From positions 186,001 through 250,000 of the forward strand of contig JAAVTG010000620.1 of the NCBI GenBank assembly GCA_011947345.1: a stretch of DNA of 64,000 nt, given 5' to 3'. The translations under genes and the position numbers were made by a program. This document shows positions 35,023 through 58,918 of this stretch, in pieces; position 1 is the first letter of the stretch; each line of letters begins with the position of its first letter. The notes beneath the pieces are model-generated. The model was not told the DNA's origin, made no database searches, and worked only from the letters and a program-made list of their open reading frames with translations. The DNA comes from Phytophthora quininea. Its lineage: Eukaryota; Oomycota; Peronosporomycetes; Peronosporales; Peronosporaceae.

Positions 35023-35794
35023 GGTGGTAATTCTCTTCCTGGCAGGAAATTGCAAAGTGAATGCTGCATCTCGACAGGAAGTGCCGATACTTGTGGTGTG
35101 GCGGTGGTCGGCAAAGCTCCGCAAATGGTCGTCGCTGACGTTGCACGGCGGTGAATCGCGTAAAGGCAGGTGGCGGTGCGTGCATCGCGCCAATCAAGGC
35201 GGTGCTGCATCGCTGATGGTGTGCTCAAGGAGGGGTCACTTCGTATGCAATGCTGTCAACAAGAGGTGCTCCAACTGCAGGTCCATGCTCACTGAAAGAA
35301 ATCGTCCGCACGCGTCCAAGGCCAAAGCACGTTTGAAAGGGTGAGTGGCAAATATCAAGAGCTGTCTGAGCAGGGCATAATTGCAGTCAGTCTGTCAACA
35401 CACCAGCAGCGAGGTCGCAGTACGTGAAGAGATACGTTCCTTCCGTTGCTAGCGCGCTTGGAGATGCTATCGGCGCGGGCTCATGTAGGTTTGGCATTCC
35501 TGTTTGGCACGCAGTCTCCGTCCAATCAGATACACACTTCACCGAAAACAGGTCGGCTAGAGACGCAAAACAAGAAGTCACTGACTGGGAAATCCAGATA
35601 GCACCGGGACGCGTGCATCACGACGCCGATGCAAGGTGCTCTATGGAGATACTCCAGCGGGTGGTCCAGAGGCCAAGGTGAAGTATCACCACCCGCTGAG
35701 CAACATCCGCATCAACCATTTGCTCAGTCGAATTGATGTGCACCAAAATCAACCTACAGCTGAAAAAGTGAGTGATGGTCGTCGCGCACCTGCG
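35023..35794. other. Divergent promoter region of the BT1 transporter and RBR copy B
   Basis: No separate gene can be supported. The frame of RBR copy B is open upstream to 35636 and would add 53 residues (including PLSNIRINHLLSRIDVHQ). Copy A has nothing similar, so I treat this as leader, though a longer protein is possible. Short open frames at 35100-35340 and 35424-35681 show no domain. Confidence 0.4.
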
Positions 35795-36925
35795 ATGACT
35801 TCGCCAGCATGCCAGATCTGCCTGGAAACGATCGTCAAGGACGTCACAGACAACGTTCTGCTCACCAACATCTGTAGCAGGAACTGCAGTGCGCACGTCT
35901 GCCAGCAATGCCTCGGCCGACACATTGACGTCTCGCTCCAGCAGTTCTACCCTGGTGTGCTGCCTCGCCTGCGTTGTCCGATCTGCCTCGTCGGGATGCA
36001 CTCGAGTCGTTGGCAAGACCGCGTCTCCGCCGACTTGTTGCCCGCGCTCCGAGCCAAGTACGCCGCGCTGTGCCACCAAGCCTGCACGCTCACGCCTCCA
36101 TGCTGCCACAAGTCCGACTACTCGCACCTCCCGACCTTGAATCTGCTGTTTCCGTCGGTCATTATCATGAAAATGCTGCCGTCGCAGCTGGAAGAATTCA
36201 AAACTCTGTGCAGACAGTTCTGCAGACACAAAGTGCCGCCTCGTGTTGTGCTCGACTACGCCTTCAGCACGTTCGGAGAGGAGAAGGCAACGACCTTGCT
36301 GACCAAGATGACGCTGCCTCGCATCGTCGACGTCGAGCGGCGAGCGACGCTGCTGCTGTCGCTCATGTACATGCGACCGAGCACCAAGACGATCTGCTGC
36401 GGAGTCGACTTCTGCTTCAACTGCAAGCGCAGCGGCCACCACGAGTCCTGCGACGAGGACTTCGACGAGGACACGAGTCTGGTGCGGTGTCGTAGCTGCC
36501 GCATCTTGGTGCTGAAGGTGGAGGGCTGCGACGCAGTCAACTGCGTGTGCGGGTTCAGCATGAACTGGCCGACGGAAGTCCAGCACCGACAGCAGTACAA
36601 GAAGAAGCTTTTGCCCGTGGATATGTTTGACGTTGAAGTATTCGACAAGTGGGCGTCGCTCCGACACAATTTCCCTGCGGTGGAGAGGGAAATGCGGAAG
36701 AAGATACAAGACAAGAAGCTCATGCGAGTCATTAGGCCGGTGCTGCGACCGTTGTTTGCAGAATTCCTTTGGCGCAGGAGGTTTTCAAAGGCTCTGAGGT
36801 CAAGTATCCACAGTACACTCTACTGGAAGGCCTACTACCGTCAGCATCCTGAGGAGTTCGAAGTCATTAGTGACGAGTTTGACTCGTTCATGTGCTGTGG
36901 TCTAGTTGATGACAACGACAATTAA
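35795..36925 (+). CDS. RING/IBR-type (RBR-like) E3 ligase, copy B
   Basis: Intact frame of 376 residues. Its first 285 residues are nearly identical to copy A (RING CQICLETIV to CPICL; IBR/RING2-like CCGVDFCFNCKRSGHHESC and CRSCRILVLKVEGCDAVNC). From residue 286 it diverges sharply in DNA and protein, but the C-terminal parts are still alignable: FLWRRRFSKAL against LLWRHRCRKAI, and TLYWKAYYRQHPEEFE against LFWSAYLRWHADELE. The pair are therefore old paralogues whose core was homogenised later. Ligase function is inferred from the cysteine pattern. Confidence 0.85.
   Translation: MTSPACQICLETIVKDVTDNVLLTNICSRNCSAHVCQQCLGRHIDVSLQQFYPGVLPRLRCPICLVGMHSSRWQDRVSADLLPALRAKYAALCHQACTLTPPCCHKSDYSHLPTLNLLFPSVIIMKMLPSQLEEFKTLCRQFCRHKVPPRVVLDYAFSTFGEEKATTLLTKMTLPRIVDVERRATLLLSLMYMRPSTKTICCGVDFCFNCKRSGHHESCDEDFDEDTSLVRCRSCRILVLKVEGCDAVNCVCGFSMNWPTEVQHRQQYKKKLLPVDMFDVEVFDKWASLRHNFPAVEREMRKKIQDKKLMRVIRPVLRPLFAEFLWRRRFSKALRSSIHSTLYWKAYYRQHPEEFEVISDEFDSFMCCGLVDDNDN
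35810..36652 (+). repeat. Inverted repeat arm B (RBR core)
   Basis: Partner of 32329-33171. The two arms are separated by 2,638 bp that hold the BT1 transporter. The mismatches I see include TGCGGC/TGTAGC after ACCAACATC, a GAT/GAC Asp codon, CATCAA/CACCAA, and two near the far end. Confidence 0.9.
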
Positions 36926-36994: not shown

Positions 36995-39746
36995 TTACGT
37001 CCTCTTCGGATTCGCGACCGTCACAACGTGGAAGCGGGTCCCGTAAGACAGTCGATACGGGTTAAAATCCTATCACCACACACACGTCAGCCTTCAAACA
37101 ACAAGTAATCATGGTGCACTGCGTACCTCAGTCGCTTGGAATGTGTCGATGAAGATAATTTCTCCACAAATGTAGGCGGGCGGAGTCCGATCGCTTCCGA
37201 CACCCAAAATCGCCGCCTGAATGGACTCGTTCGCCAAGTAATAGTTGGGGGCGCCTTCGTTGAAGGCCACGTACGGCAGCTTGCCTCCTTCAGGAAGAAC
37301 AGAGCCAGTGAGCTGATCTGGAAGCTGCGGAAGGATATCCGTTGGTGGTCAACTGGCGAGTGTGAAGTCGGAGGAGAAGGCTGCACGCTCGACACCTCAT
37401 GCAGTCCGTGCTCTTCGACGTCATCAACAGCCGTACGACCCGTAAGCACTTGAGAGAGGGGCAGCTCGTCCGAAGCCGACGAACTGTCGGTAGTTCCCAC
37501 GCTCCCGTTCGCGTCATGGGAAGAAGTCACCAATGGCGTCACTGAGACGACGTGATACTTGGTGCCTTCCCGTAGACAATACGGATTCAGCTTCTGCAAA
37601 TGCGCCATGTAACAAATAAGAATTAGATCGAACCGCTCAAGTACATGAAGTATATCTGTCGCTTTTACGTCAGTTGTTTCATGGTCTTCAATGTAGACGA
37701 TATGCCCAAGAACGTACGGCGGGTTCCTGACAAGCAGCAAATAATCGTTAGCAATGATGAAACAGTCGACGGAATAAACGCATGCTAACCGATCGTCTCG
37801 CTTCGAGGCGGCTATCGATTCCTCGGACAAATAGTAGTGGGGACAGCCTTCGTGGAAGGCAATATAGTCGCCAAACGGAGTGGGCACGAAAAGTGCAACA
37901 CTACCGCTGGAAAAGCTCTTGTAGCAAATACCGAGCATCTCCTCGATACGGTTATCGTCCGTCACCCATTGGCGACGCTCACCAACAAGCCAATTCTCAT
38001 TCTTGGCTGCGGGGATCACTTCTCGAGCTGGCATTTTTGTATCTCCCTCGAACTCGATTGCTGCAGGCGTATCCTCAGTGCTGTCAAGCGTCTTGCTGCT
38101 TCGCGGAGAAGACGTGTCGACCACTACGTCGCGGATTTCCACACTTCCGTCAACAATCGCCGTGGTTGCATCACTAGCGGAAACATTTTCAACCGCCGGC
38201 GCATGATGCTTTGTCTGGATATCCAATAAGTCGTCAGCGTCCTCCTGTAAACTGTTCTCGAGTGAATAAAGTACACCTACCTTTTCATCTAGATCCACGT
38301 TTAAGTCCTGACCATCCAGAACTTTGCGTCCCACATCTTCATACTCATTTTCGACCATTACATACTCGTCACTGAAAGTTCCCCAGTCCTCTACACAGTT
38401 AACAGCCATAAAGTATAAGTAAACCCACTCGACCACTACAGATTTGTTTCCAGCTTACCGTATTCAGGCTGCTTTTCAGCAACAAGAGGCTGTTTCGTCT
38501 CGGAGCTTTGTAAATCGGTACTAGTAGCATCTTCGTCAGACGGCACAGGAGGCAGCAAAAACGGAGCTCGGAAGAAGTCCTCGAACGAAATTCGTTTGGC
38601 TGGGTCGACTCGCAATAACGCTTCTACTAGTTGTTCACATTCGGGCGACACTTGGACCTTTTGGGAAGACGGACGCGGCCGTAGCGCTCGAAGTACCGGT
38701 AGATGTTTCGTCGTAGCGCTAAGTGGTTCGTCGCGTGACACTTATCCACAATCAGGAACGGATGTTCATTCACAAGCATCTCGTATAAAATAATCCCCAC
38801 GGACCACAAGTCAGCCTTGGCGTCGTAGCTCTTGTACTCCAGCAATTCTGGTGCCATGTAGAGTGGCGACCCCACCACACTCTCAGCCATCATCTCGGAC
38901 TCTAACTCTCGTGCAAAGCCGAAATCCGCTGCATTATTTTCACAGACAAATGATCAGTATTTTATCTAACAATTTGCACAACTTGCTACGCACCAATTTT
39001 CAGTTTTGCAGTGGCCAAATTCCGAGACGACAACAGCAGATTCGCAGGCTTCAAGTCACGGTGCACAACATTCTGCGAGCGAAGGAACTGCAGTCCCGAA
39101 GCTGCACAAAAGGTACAAATCATTAACACTACAGTCGACACGAAAGAAGCAGCTAAAACGCACCCAACTGCGACAAATACAGCCGAGCTTGCTCCTCCGT
39201 CAGTCCGTTCTTCGCCTTCATCAGCTGCGCAATGTCTCCCCTGCACAATACTCCTGCAAATAATAATATAAGTTAAATCAATTATTCCATCTCCTGACAT
39301 GACGGAACTGCCGACCTGCACGATGAAAATGTGGTGCTGCGACTCTTTGGTGCACAGCAGCCGCACGATGTGCGGGTGGCCGTTCTCGAACTGCTCCACG
39401 GCCACGCGCATGGTCTCGATCTCCTTCTCGATGCTCTGGCGCTCGTGCGGCCGCCGCAGCTTGTCCTTGCCGATCATCTTGACGGCCACGGCGGCGCCCG
39501 ACGACAGGTTGATGGCCTTGTGCACCTGAACAGTACAAAATAAATATATGTAAGAGAGGGTGTTCATTACTGTGGAGTTTGGCGACGTACTGTGCCATAG
39601 GAACCGCGTCCGATCGTCTCCACCAAACTGCACAGCGAACAAGAGGCGGTGAGGCTGCGCTGCAGTCTGTAAGTAGACACGAGTGGAAGCAGGACGCACC
39701 GGAAGATGTTGCCGCACACGGTGATGGTCTGGCCGTTGGCGCTCAT
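36995..39746 (-). CDS. ATG1: ATG1/ULK autophagy kinase fused to two FIP200/ATG11-type Claw domains
   Basis: Ten exons can be placed: 39700-39746, 39591-39627, 39316-39525, 39164-39253, 38994-39101, 38459-38928, 37790-38390, 37669-37726, 37127-37593 and 36995-37069. Kinase parts are [56 protein letters not shown] and [11 protein letters not shown] with DLWSVG. Directly after the kinase comes [14 protein letters not shown], matching the ATG8-binding AIM/LIR of ATG1/ULK (yeast EYVVVE). An acidic linker leads to Claw 1 ([64 protein letters not shown]). Claw 2 follows ([60 protein letters not shown]). Three one-base losses in homopolymers (G run at 39243, A run near 38663, G run near 37288) restore a 721-residue frame. 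Confidence 0.85.
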
Positions 39747-39912: not shown

Positions 39913-40944
39913 CTATCCCGCGCTTTCCAGCGGCACCACTTCCTCACCTTCTCCGTCGTCTTCCTCCTCGGGCCTCTCTTCGTCGGCACCGTACTCCTGC
40001 TCGCCGTCCGCCTCCTCCTGCTCTTGATTCTCGTCGTCGTCGTCGCTGCCGTCGAAGAGTTTTTCCCGCTCGGCCGCGAGCTTCTGACGCTGCTCGTCCT
40101 CCAGCCTGCGCGCCTCTTCCTGGGCGTCCTGCAGCACTCGGTCGCGACTCTCCTGCTGTGCCTGCTCGCGCGCGCGCTTGGCCTCGTCCTTCTTCTTGGC
40201 CCACTGATCCATCTGGGCCTGCCGCATGCGCCGCGTCGTCTCGCTCACGACGAAGCAGACGGCCGCGACGAACACGACCCAGAAGGAGGCCACCTCGTAC
40301 TGCGAGATGATGTAGAGCGCCGGCGACATGGCCAGACAGGACTCGAAGCCCGAGCTGGTGGCCGTGGCCGCCTGCAGCGTGCCGTAGAGCCCCCACCAGA
40401 CCACGCAGAGCAGGCCGTAGACGAGGTAGAAGACCCGCACAGTGCGCAAACTCTTGATCGGCCACGGCCCCATCCAGCAGTACGTGTAGAAGAGCACCAG
40501 CACGTGGCTCAGCACCACAGCGCCCTGCATGAATCCTGCAGAAAGGGAAACAAGAAACGGCCCGTAGCGTCAGCCTCGCCGCCTCGTGACGAAAGATGGC
40601 GGACGCACGCATCAGATCCGCGTTGCAGTTGTTGGTGGCCACGTTGATGACCACGCCGCCAAAGACGATGGTCGTGAGCGCCAGACACACGGGCACGAGC
40701 GGGAACAGCAGCAGGATCCGCGCCCAGTACTTGGTCTTCTCTCGCTCGCGCGCGATGCGGGTGGCCAGGTCTTGCTCCTACAGCAGCAAGCAGTCCAGTG
40801 TCAGCCTTGTGTCGCGCTGGTCTCCGCTCTGCCACGACGTCTCACCGGCGGCTTCTTCTTGATGGCGGCGGCGAACGACGTCGTGCGCTTCGGGTGCAGC
40901 TCCGCCGAGTTGGGGGTCTCGTTGTCCTGCTCGCCGTCGCTCAT
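39913..40944 (-). CDS. Four-TM protein with cytoplasmic coiled coil and acidic tail, unknown function
   Basis: Three exons (40846-40944, 40609-40777, 39913-40535) give an intact frame of 296 residues from MSDGEQDNETPN. A basic juxtamembrane stretch (REREKTKYW) precedes four hydrophobic segments: ILLLFPLVPVCLALTTIVFG, QGAVVLSHVLVLFYTYC, VFYLVYGLLCVVWWGLYG and VASFWVVFVAAVCFVVS. A charged helix follows (WAKKKDEAKRAREQAQQES) and then a very acidic C-terminus with DGSDDDDENQEQEE. N-terminal Cys and Asn (NNCNADL) in the first loop could be lumenal. I do not recognise a family. It could be an ER or trafficking protein, but that is a guess from the layout. Confidence 0.75.
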
Positions 40945-57296: not shown

Positions 57297-58918
57297 ATGA
57301 AGGTCTTCGCCCCATACAGGCTCTCGTGCCCGTCCTATTATGCGGCCTCGCGCAGGCCCAGAACAGCGCGACACAGGACGCCTCCACGTCCAACCCCAGC
57401 TCGGGCTCCGTCATCATTTACATCGTCATCGCCGTCATCGTCGTGCTCTTCTTCATCGTGGGCTTCTTCGTGTGGAAGCGCAAGCAGAACCGCAAGCGGG
57501 AGGGGGATGTGCGGTACGGACTGCCATCTACCACAGCGGGCACCAGCCACGCCACGGGCAACGGCAACCTCTACGACCGACGCGTAGACTCGACGGGCTA
57601 CCGCTACAGCAGTAACAAGAAACCTTCGCAAGCCTCGCACAACTATCAGCAGTCGCAGCAGCCGAGAATGTCGCGGCAGTCACGGAAGTCCCCGGGCAGA
57701 GCAGAGCGTCCTCCGCAATGGCCTGCTAATGGAGCGCCCACGTACACTCGACAGCAACAGCAGTACGAGCAGCACTACCCGCAGCAATCCCAGTACCAGT
57801 CGCAGTACCAGTCCCAGTACCAATCTCAGTACCAGTCGCAATACCAGTCGCGCTACGAGCAGTCCATGTACCCGCCCCCGCCCGAGGTCCCCATGCTCGA
57901 GCCGAATGCCAACGACTTGGCCATGTCCATGAGAGATCTGCAGCAGTCGCAGGTGTCGGTGCCTGCGTCCTCGGTGGAGGGAGTGCACAAGCAACAGATT
58001 GACCCAGAGGTGATTGCACGCACCAAGGAAGCGGCCGATAAGGTCATGGCCGACTTTGAGACCGACCCGGACTTTGACGAGCGCTGGGTGCCATATGACT
58101 CGCTCTACTTTACGCGGGTGATTTCTAAGGGCGCGTTTGGAGAGGTGTGGCTGGCCCAGCTGGAGAACACGCAGGTCGCAGTCAAGAAGATCCTCGAGGA
58201 CAAGAAGCACGACGTCAAGGAGATCGAGTGCTTCGGCGCCGAGATTAAACTTATGGCACTGTTCAAACACCCCAAGATTGTGGGTTTCGTCGGCGTGTCG
58301 TGGAGCGCCGAGCAGGATCTGTGCGCCATCACCGAGTTCATGGCCAAGGGAGACCTTTACGGCTACCTGGAGCGCCGCAAGGGCCACCTGAACTGGCCGG
58401 ACCACAAGCTGTATTTGTCGGAGGACATTGCAGAGGCGCTCGTGTACTTGCACTCGCTGTCGCCCAAGGTCATTCACCGCGACCTCAAGTCCAAGAACAT
58501 TCTGCTGGACAATCAGTACCGCGCCAAGCTGAGCGACTTTGGAATCAGTCGCAAGCGGTCGGTGGAGGAGACAATGACGGCGGGAGTGGGCACCATCTAC
58601 TGGACGGCGCCCGAGGTGCTCATGGGCAAGAAGTACACGGAGAAGGCCGACATTTACTCGTTCGGCATCGTCATGTCGGAGATGGACACGCACGCTGTGC
58701 CGTTCTCGGACAAACGCGACGACCAGGGCAAGAAGCTGCAGGGCATGAAGATCATCCAGATGGTCATCCGAATGTCGCTCCGTCCGACGTTCCTGGACGA
58801 CTGCCCCGAGCCCGTCAAGGAGCTGGCGGCGCGCTGCCTCAAGGCCGAGCCGGACGAGCGACCGGATGCGCCCGAGCTGCTCCGCATCATCCGAGAGATC
58901 CAGGACGATTTGCAGTAG
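57297..58918 (+). CDS. Receptor-like TKL protein kinase with signal peptide and one TM segment
   Basis: A signal peptide (MKVFAP then QALVPVLLCGLAQA) is readable once one C lost in GCCCCATAC near 57313 is allowed. A short Ser/Thr-rich ectodomain is followed by one membrane segment (SVIIYIVIAVIVVLFFIVGFFVW) and a Gln/Tyr/Ser-rich juxtamembrane with QYQS repeats. The kinase domain from about 58100 has GAFGEVWLAQL, VAVKKILEDKK, VIHRDLKSKNILL, SDFGISRKRS and GTIYWTAPEVLMG. Catalytic Lys, Asp and DFG are present, so it should be active. The substrate and ligand are unknown. It is followed by a paralogue at 59705. Confidence 0.9.
57788..57852 (+). repeat. Short tandem repeat coding for QYQS
   Basis: About five copies of a 12-bp unit (CAGTACCAGTCG and near variants) in the juxtamembrane linker of the kinase. 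Such a unit can change length easily between strains. Confidence 0.85.

What the first reader, a model, noticed from the sequence alone, without database searches (positions are those of the whole stretch)
36995..39746. ATG1/ULK kinase fused to two tandem FIP200/ATG11 Claw domains
Spliced in frame, the minus-strand gene joins a complete ULK-type kinase, an ATG1-type AIM/LIR (SDEYVMVE, as in yeast EYVVVE) and two copies of the C-terminal Claw fold. Each copy has the LALF/VALF start, the YxAFxEGxPxYYLxxES strand-loop, the xxGxIxxID/ED strand and the closing NPYxLxxGTxxHVVxV. In animals, plants and fungi the Claw sits on FIP200/ATG11, a separate scaffold that reads FIR motifs of cargo receptors and then recruits ATG1. 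A single protein would couple cargo reading directly to kinase activation and could replace a scaffold. Two Claws could read two receptors or act like the Claw dimer. I know of no description of this layout. The exon chain adds up to an exact codon number after three homopolymer repairs.
Basis: partly seen in the sequence, partly recalled or inferred. Interest (0 to 1): 0.92.

Follow-up and report, generated by a model that had tools for sequence, protein, structure and literature searches.

The report
Oomycete ATG1 kinase with two Claws
In oomycetes (water moulds such as Phytophthora) one of the two kinases that start autophagy carries, fused to its own tail, two copies of the domain that normally sits on a separate scaffold and reads cargo receptors, so one protein could in principle both find the cargo and switch autophagy on.

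Summary
A 10-exon minus-strand gene (39746-36995) encodes an ULK/ATG1-type kinase, an ATG8-interacting-motif-like EYVMV and two tandem ATG11/FIP200 Claws. Three single-base frame breaks in the assembled DNA fit this assembly's own error rate; orthologues are intact.

The fusion is no one-off: 38 of 41 proteins found with the Claw region carry kinase and Claw, from Phytophthora and downy mildews to Albugo, Pythium, Aphanomyces and Saprolegnia. One unplaced metagenomic protein, P0044, has the same layout and a kinase of the same origin. A shared intron position ties Claw 1 to the ATG11 gene.

It does not replace the scaffold: the genome has a separate ATG11, a conventional ATG1, ATG13 and ATG101. 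And the layout is partly in print: a 2017 Phytophthora sojae survey says DUF3543 'is replaced by an Atg11 domain in Atg1a' (PMC5431975). I found no mention of two Claws, nor any function.

Best reading: a second ATG1 with built-in Claws for dimerisation and recruitment. The mechanism is inferred; the vertebrate basic FIR clamp is absent.

The parts
36995..39746 (-). whole gene, 10 exons, 2163 nt of exon, about 722 codons with three single-base frame breaks (exons 4, 6, 9)
   Evidence: splice sites and frames; orthologues
38559..39627 (-). ULK/ATG1-type protein kinase domain over exons 2-6 (limits approximate): [30 protein letters not shown] motifs
   Evidence: Pfam Pkinase on pieces; orthologue's best solved matches ULK3, ULK1, ULK2; kinase trees
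38326..38373 (-). AIM/LIR-like motif SDEYVMVE followed by the conserved EYEDVGR, first part of exon 7
   Evidence: window translation; matching motif in 40 of 40 rows P0001-P0040
37540..37935 (-). Claw 1 (ATG11/FIP200 C-terminal domain, PF10377), exons 7-9, with introns at 37789-37727 (phase 2) and 37668-37594 (phase 0)
   Evidence: Pfam E 7.7e-18; introns
37016..37341 (-). Claw 2 (PF10377), exons 9-10, with an intron at 37126-37070 (phase 0) at the place matching Claw 1's second intron
   Evidence: Pfam 22.8 bits on one frame piece; orthologous Claw 2 matches FIP200 Claw structures at E 5e-6

Best explanation
This is the window's copy of oomycete 'Atg1a', an old second ATG1/ULK-type kinase in which two tandem Claw domains, related to those of ATG11/FIP200, stand where other ATG1s have their MIT region. 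It works alongside, not instead of, the conventional ATG1-ATG13-ATG101-ATG11 set. Most likely mechanism: the Claws, Claw 2 above all, dimerise the kinase and dock it on LIR/FIR-type acidic-hydrophobic motifs of cargo receptors or core factors. The kinase is thereby concentrated and activated by autophosphorylation at the cargo without first being bound by the ATG11 scaffold, and its own LIR-like EYVMV hands it to ATG8 on the growing membrane. Shown here: domain make-up, conservation, common origin of the fusion kinases, kinship of Claw 1 with the ATG11 Claw by intron place, and co-existence with the conventional set. Inferred: dimerisation, ligand binding, activation, hand-over to ATG8.
For: Domains. 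Conservation: 38 of 41 proteins found with the Claw region carry both Pkinase and ATG11 by the precomputed Pfam column. Pfam finds two ATG11 stretches in 5 of 5 fusion proteins scanned. Common origin: nine fusion kinases, P0044 included, form one group (100/99) inside the ULK/ATG1 group (100/100) and apart from oomycete ATG1b; the group holds at 100/98 with two long rows left out. Origin of the Claw: the first Claw-1 intron has the same place and phase (codon split CG|G, AG|A) as the intron in this genome's ATG11 Claw. Constraint: Claw 2 has 53 of 94 and Claw 1 39 of 96 columns invariant over 20 oomycete proteins, against 165 of 274 for the kinase and 1 of 94 and 1 of 60 for the two linkers. 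Precedent: in fission yeast, artificially dimerised Atg1 bypasses Atg11 (PMC7511232, abstract and passages). FIP200 Claw is a dimer, and its binding to the LIR-containing part of p62 excludes LC3B (PMC6477179, passages).
Against: Both Claws lack the basic pair K1569/R1573 that holds acidic FIRs in vertebrates; this genome's ATG11 Claw and the one other ATG11 aligned lack it too. Turco et al. [quoted passage not shown] In S. pombe the activating 62-residue part of Atg11 is not the Claw. No binding, dimer or expression data exist here. The AlphaFold2 models were weak (mean pLDDT 45.3 and 61.8) and were of single chains, so they say nothing on dimers.
Confidence: 0.55

Rival explanations
1. The Claws plug Atg1a into the conventional complex: they pair with the Claw of the separate ATG11, so that Atg1a is a scaffold-bound second kinase and not a scaffold-free one.
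For: The same genome has ATG11 with a Claw. The start of the Claw that in FIP200 forms the dimer strand beta0 is alike in Claw 2 (RISFRSF) and in this genome's ATG11 (KISFRSF).
Against: Nothing tests pairing here. Claw 1 (LGICYKSF) differs at this strand.
Confidence: 0.2
2. Self-lock: the kinase's own LIR-like SDEYVMVE sits in a Claw groove in cis (or in the neighbour's Claw) and ATG8 or phosphorylation releases it; the Claws are regulatory, not receptor readers.
For: FIR and LIR motifs overlap, and Claw and LC3B binding exclude each other in p62. The motif is conserved in 40 of 40 rows P0001-P0040 and lies between kinase and Claws.
Against: The full-length model shows no strand at the motif and pLDDT of 25-32 there (weak model). 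Conventional ATG1b, without Claws, keeps the same kind of motif (EYVLVDE), which ATG8 binding alone explains.
Confidence: 0.12
3. A pseudogene in this strain: the three frame breaks are real and the gene is dead here.
For: Three frame breaks in the assembled sequence, no second copy found.
Against: The assembly makes such single-base errors at about this rate in the one pair of identical stretches compared. Splice sites, catalytic motifs and both Claws are otherwise intact, and orthologues are intact in many species.
Confidence: 0.05
4. Two neighbouring genes (kinase; Claw protein) wrongly joined.
For: Some database models stop near the kinase end (P0043 of P. infestans, 370 aa). Intron 6 has a stop in all three frames.
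Against: Full-length models with the same order in many oomycete genera and in P0044; the conserved LIR-EYEDVGR block lies just behind the junction.
Confidence: 0.03

Closest known systems
Oomycete Atg1a (PMC5431975, P. sojae survey, 2017)
   Same: Kinase with an Atg11 domain in place of DUF3543; very probably this orthologue (section 5 read in full).
   Different: The text names one Atg11 domain, not two; no LIR, origin, age or mechanism is discussed in the parts I saw (that section plus passages; the figure is not held, so which species it shows I cannot say).
ATG1/ULK1/ULK2/ULK3 kinases
   Same: Kinase domain in the ULK/ATG1 group and an AIM/LIR-like motif after the kinase.
   Different: No MIT/DUF3543 C-terminus detected; two Claws instead; a stretch with [12 protein letters not shown] in the late kinase lobe shared in part by P0044.
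ATG11/FIP200 (RB1CC1) scaffold
   Same: C-terminal Claw, PF10377; intron place shared with this genome's ATG11 Claw.
   Different: No ATG17-like domain; two Claws in place of one; fused to the kinase that ATG11 normally recruits.
Artificial Atg1-leucine-zipper fusion in S. pombe (PMC7511232)
   Same: A dimerising module at the C-terminus of Atg1, made by experimenters, bypasses Atg11.
   Different: Here the module is natural, is the Claw, and comes twice; bypass is untested.

Membership tests
ATG1/ULK kinase | kinase domain inside the ULK/ATG1 group | tested here: met
   9 of 9 fusion kinases fall in the 100/100 ULK/ATG1 group against four other kinases of this genome (again with three); best solved matches ULK3, ULK1, ULK2
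ATG1/ULK kinase | catalytic motifs (VAVK, HRD, DFG, APE) | tested here: met
   window frames; alignment A1
Conventional ATG1 | C-terminal MIT region (DUF3543/PF12063, PF21127) | tested here: not met
   no MIT match at E 0.01 in P0004, P0024, P0025, P0033, P0044; so filed as an ATG1-type paralogue, not the conventional ATG1
ATG1/ULK kinase | binding to ATG8 through an AIM/LIR | not testable with these tools
   only the motif is seen
ATG11/FIP200 | Claw domain PF10377 | tested here: met
   both copies; profile match to FIP200 Claw structures
ATG11/FIP200 | ATG17-like domain PF04108 | tested here: not met
   not found at E 0.01 in the five fusion proteins scanned; found in the separate ATG11 of this genome
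FIP200-type FIR reader | basic clamp K1569 and R1573 | tested here: not met
   R1573 is Pro in 34 of 34 oomycete Claws; K1569 kept in 1 of 17 Claw 1 and 0 of 17 Claw 2 (Glu in 17 of 17); 17 of the 38 fusion proteins were used
FIP200-type FIR reader | large hydrophobic pocket (1565, 1567, 1574, 1576, 1582) | tested here: inconclusive
   Claw 2: F, A, Y, L, F in 17 of 17; Claw 1 variable and partly polar
Claw fold | fold by structure prediction | tested here: inconclusive

The most novel reading that the evidence does not exclude
A natural scaffold-free selective-autophagy initiator, possibly older than oomycetes: the kinase carries its own twin cargo readers, Claw 1 and Claw 2 with different frozen surfaces for two kinds of ligand, and can start autophagosomes at cargo without ATG11. 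The conventional ATG1b-ATG11 set would handle another branch.
Probability: 0.25. Interest if true: 0.85.

Novelty: new variant of a known kind. Interest (0 to 1): 0.62.

Why it matters
How cargo receptors switch on ATG1/ULK is usually explained through a separate scaffold. A natural kinase-Claw fusion kept across many oomycete genera, beside a full conventional set, gives a one-protein system in which cargo binding, dimerisation and kinase activation can be tested directly. It also points to a lineage-specific branch of autophagy in a group that includes major crop and fish pathogens.

Tried and rejected

Search for more non-oomycete fusions: the P0044 Claw region returned only itself among 6621 candidates, perhaps because its alanine-rich stretch floods the word filter. 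The first search did not find P0044 either, so the method cannot show absence elsewhere. P0044's organism is unknown to me, and its Claw 1 is very divergent (branch 4.02, place unresolved).

Claw trees: in the 39-row tree P0044 Claw 2 joins oomycete Claw 2 (96/92). The control without human FIP200 and P0044 Claw 1 keeps that join (100/99) but puts P0044 Claw 2 inside the oomycete rows (98/96), flags its letter make-up as odd, and puts the two ATG11 Claws on the Claw-1 side. So the Claw trees do not by themselves show that the doubling is older than oomycetes, nor do they exclude two separate captures from ATG11; the kinase trees put P0044 outside the oomycete fusions. A first try at that control stopped with an error in my group list.

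I did not compute dN/dS because I had no orthologue DNA. Two fusion proteins of source 'lgn' on short contigs (P0001, P0017) might be cDNA, but the output does not say, so I do not use them as proof of transcription.

The conventional ATG1b's MIT match is weak (18.4 bits under a cut-off of 22.5); ATG1b rests on 71% and 64% identity of its two kinase exons to P0054. PF10033 for ATG13 is 45 bits over joined pieces, cut-off 25. The best ATG101 match has one stop inside.

Not in print: the claim that two Claws are not described rests on search listings only and on PMC5431975 (section 5 in full plus passages). Its figure and supplements were not seen. Papers seen: PMC5431975 (section 5 and passages), PMC7946963 (passages), PMC6477179 (passages), PMC7511232 (abstract and passages), PMC10913709 (one passage); others as listings only (too).

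Full report
What is there. On the minus strand, 39746 to 36995, ten exons with GT..AG introns of 57-75 nt join into 2163 nt. The translation gives, in order: a complete kinase ([30 protein letters not shown]), the motif SDEYVMVE with EYEDVGR behind it, and two copies of the ATG11/FIP200 Claw. Pfam ATG11 matches the frame with Claw 1 at 7.7e-18 and the Claw-2 frame piece at 22.8 bits (cut-off 22); Pkinase matches one kinase piece above and one below its cut-off. A profile of both Claw types finds only FIP200 Claw in the PDB (8 distinct sequences at E up to 0.1), at about 1e-8. Human ULK3, ULK1 and ULK2 are the nearest solved kinases to the orthologous kinase.

The frame breaks. Three single-base breaks, in exons 4, 6 and 9, move the reading frame 0, 2, 1, 0. 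Orthologues are intact. Two otherwise identical stretches of the same assembly, on C651 and C652, differ over 3793 aligned bases by no mismatch and 7 single-base gaps, 5 of them in runs of three or more. At that rate about two such errors are expected in 2163 nt, so three are unremarkable. Two other contig pairs, which look like haplotypes (74 and 148 mismatches), show 5 and 6 single-base gaps, 3 and 1 of them in such runs. I therefore take the gene as intact in the organism, though I cannot show it. One search listed no second copy.

How widespread. A search with the Claw region gave 41 proteins; 38 carry both Pkinase and ATG11 by the precomputed Pfam column. The three others are P0034 (partial), P0040 (short) and P0041, an ATG11 with an ATG17-like domain. 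Named species span Phytophthora, Nothophytophthora, Hyaloperonospora, Peronospora, Plasmopara, Bremia, Albugo, Globisporangium, Pythium, Lagenidium, Aphanomyces, Achlya, Thraustotheca and Saprolegnia. Pfam finds two ATG11 stretches in all five fusion proteins I scanned (P0004, P0024, P0025, P0033, P0044). A kinase-region search (120 best of 3604 shown) brought one more fusion, P0044, from an ENA metagenome contig. The other rows with ATG11 in the Pfam column were named oomycetes or the unnamed P0001 and P0017; no plant or algal ATG1 among the rows shown has it. A [DE]YV[MIL]V[DE] motif is present in 40 of 40 rows P0001-P0040 and in P0042, not in the truncated P0043; P0044 has GFVLVD instead.

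Where it comes from. In a 33-row kinase tree all nine fusions, P0044 included, form one group (100/99), with P0044 outside the eight oomycete rows (100/97). The group lies inside the ULK/ATG1 group (100/100 against four other kinases of this genome) and apart from oomycete ATG1b. With two long rows (human ULK3 and one outgroup kinase) left out the group holds (100/98). In a 39-row Claw tree the Claw-1 and Claw-2 rows fall on two sides of one branch in all 200 bootstrap trees, and P0044 Claw 2 joins oomycete Claw 2 (96/92), while P0044 Claw 1 is unresolved. A control without human FIP200 and P0044 Claw 1 keeps the join (100/99) but nests P0044 Claw 2, a long and oddly composed row, inside the oomycetes (98/96), and puts the two ATG11 Claws on the Claw-1 side. 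Introns add independent evidence. Claw 1's first intron (phase 2, codon CG|G before NPPYVLG) has the same place and phase as the intron in this genome's ATG11 Claw (AG|A before YPDYVVG). Claw 1's second intron (phase 0, before KLNPY) matches that of Claw 2 (before DFNPY). My preferred history is one Claw copied from an ATG11 gene onto an ATG1 paralogue and then doubled, before oomycetes parted from the P0044 lineage. Two captures, or a later date, are not excluded.

What else the genome has. ATG17-like plus Claw, that is a separate ATG11, lies on C546 and, as a second copy, on C754. A conventional ATG1 lies on C456: kinase exons 71% and 64% identical to the ATG1b-type P0054 of Aphanomyces invadans, with its own EYVLV motif and a weak, sub-threshold MIT match. 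ATG13 and ATG101 are present. So the fusion is an addition, not a replacement.

How it most likely works. The Claws are under strong constraint: 53 of 94 (Claw 2) and 39 of 96 (Claw 1) columns are invariant over 20 oomycete proteins, against 1 of 94 and 1 of 60 in the linkers. The frozen parts differ. In Claw 1 it is the first three strands (22 of 29 invariant) rather than the last two (8 of 35); in Claw 2 both parts are (17 of 28 and 26 of 37). In FIP200 the peptide lies along beta4, with a hydrophobic pocket at 1565, 1567, 1574, 1576 and 1582 and a basic clamp K1569/R1573 (PMC7946963, passages). Claw 2 keeps a uniformly hydrophobic pocket (F, A, Y, L, F in 17 of 17), while in Claw 1 it is mixed. 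The basic clamp is gone in both, and also in the two ATG11 Claws aligned. Yeast ATG11 lacks the clamp as well, yet yeast Atg11 CTR binds Atg19 through its LIRs (PMC6477179), so loss of the clamp does not exclude LIR-type binding. FIP200 Claw is a dimer through its first strand; Claw 2 keeps HQRISF invariant there. In fission yeast a C-terminal dimerising tag on Atg1 bypasses Atg11 for autophagy and kinase activity (PMC7511232). From this I infer a kinase that dimerises and docks through its own Claws at LIR-bearing partners and activates there. Against it: Turco et al. doubt that induced dimerisation of FIP200 signals to ULK1, and the S. pombe activating segment is not the Claw. Rivals are pairing with ATG11's Claw and a cis lock with the protein's own LIR. 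The weak full-length model gives no support to the lock.

Prior art. PMC5431975 (2017; section 5 read) states that in oomycete Atg1a the DUF3543 domain is replaced by an Atg11 domain, and that Atg1b is the conserved form. The layout is therefore partly known. Two Claws, the age of the fusion, its ATG11 intron signature, the loss of the FIR clamp and any mechanism were not found in the listings.

Verdict. Real, conserved, old, partly in print, functionally unexplored as far as I could search. New variant of a known kind.

Noticed in passing
G000 contigs C651/C652, C546/C754, C593/C257: The assembly holds near-identical duplicate contigs; between two identical stretches (C651/C652) it shows single-base, mostly homopolymer, gaps at about 1.8 per kb. 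Frame-based gene calls on this genome need care.
   Followed up: yes
39913-40841 (minus): Upstream same-strand gene for a membrane protein with a charged tail. Annotators fused its product with the kinase in P. cactorum (P0006, 920 aa) and Pythium insidiosum (P0036, 719 aa), so the gene order is conserved and the joined models look like annotation artefacts.
   Followed up: partly
P0043 (P. infestans, 370 aa): This database model runs off after the kinase and loses both Claws, which hides the fusion in that species.
   Followed up: no
P0044 (ENA metagenome, 809 aa, contig of 7823 bases): Kinase plus two Claws outside named oomycetes, alanine-rich and of unknown organism; its Claw 1 has diverged strongly.
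   Followed up: partly
35585-36925 (plus): Convergent downstream open frame of 446 aa with Cys-rich RING/IBR-like blocks, perhaps an RBR-type ubiquitin ligase; label from reading the translation only.
   Followed up: no
window 58115-58882 (plus): Another protein kinase domain in the same window (C613:244115-244882).
   Followed up: no
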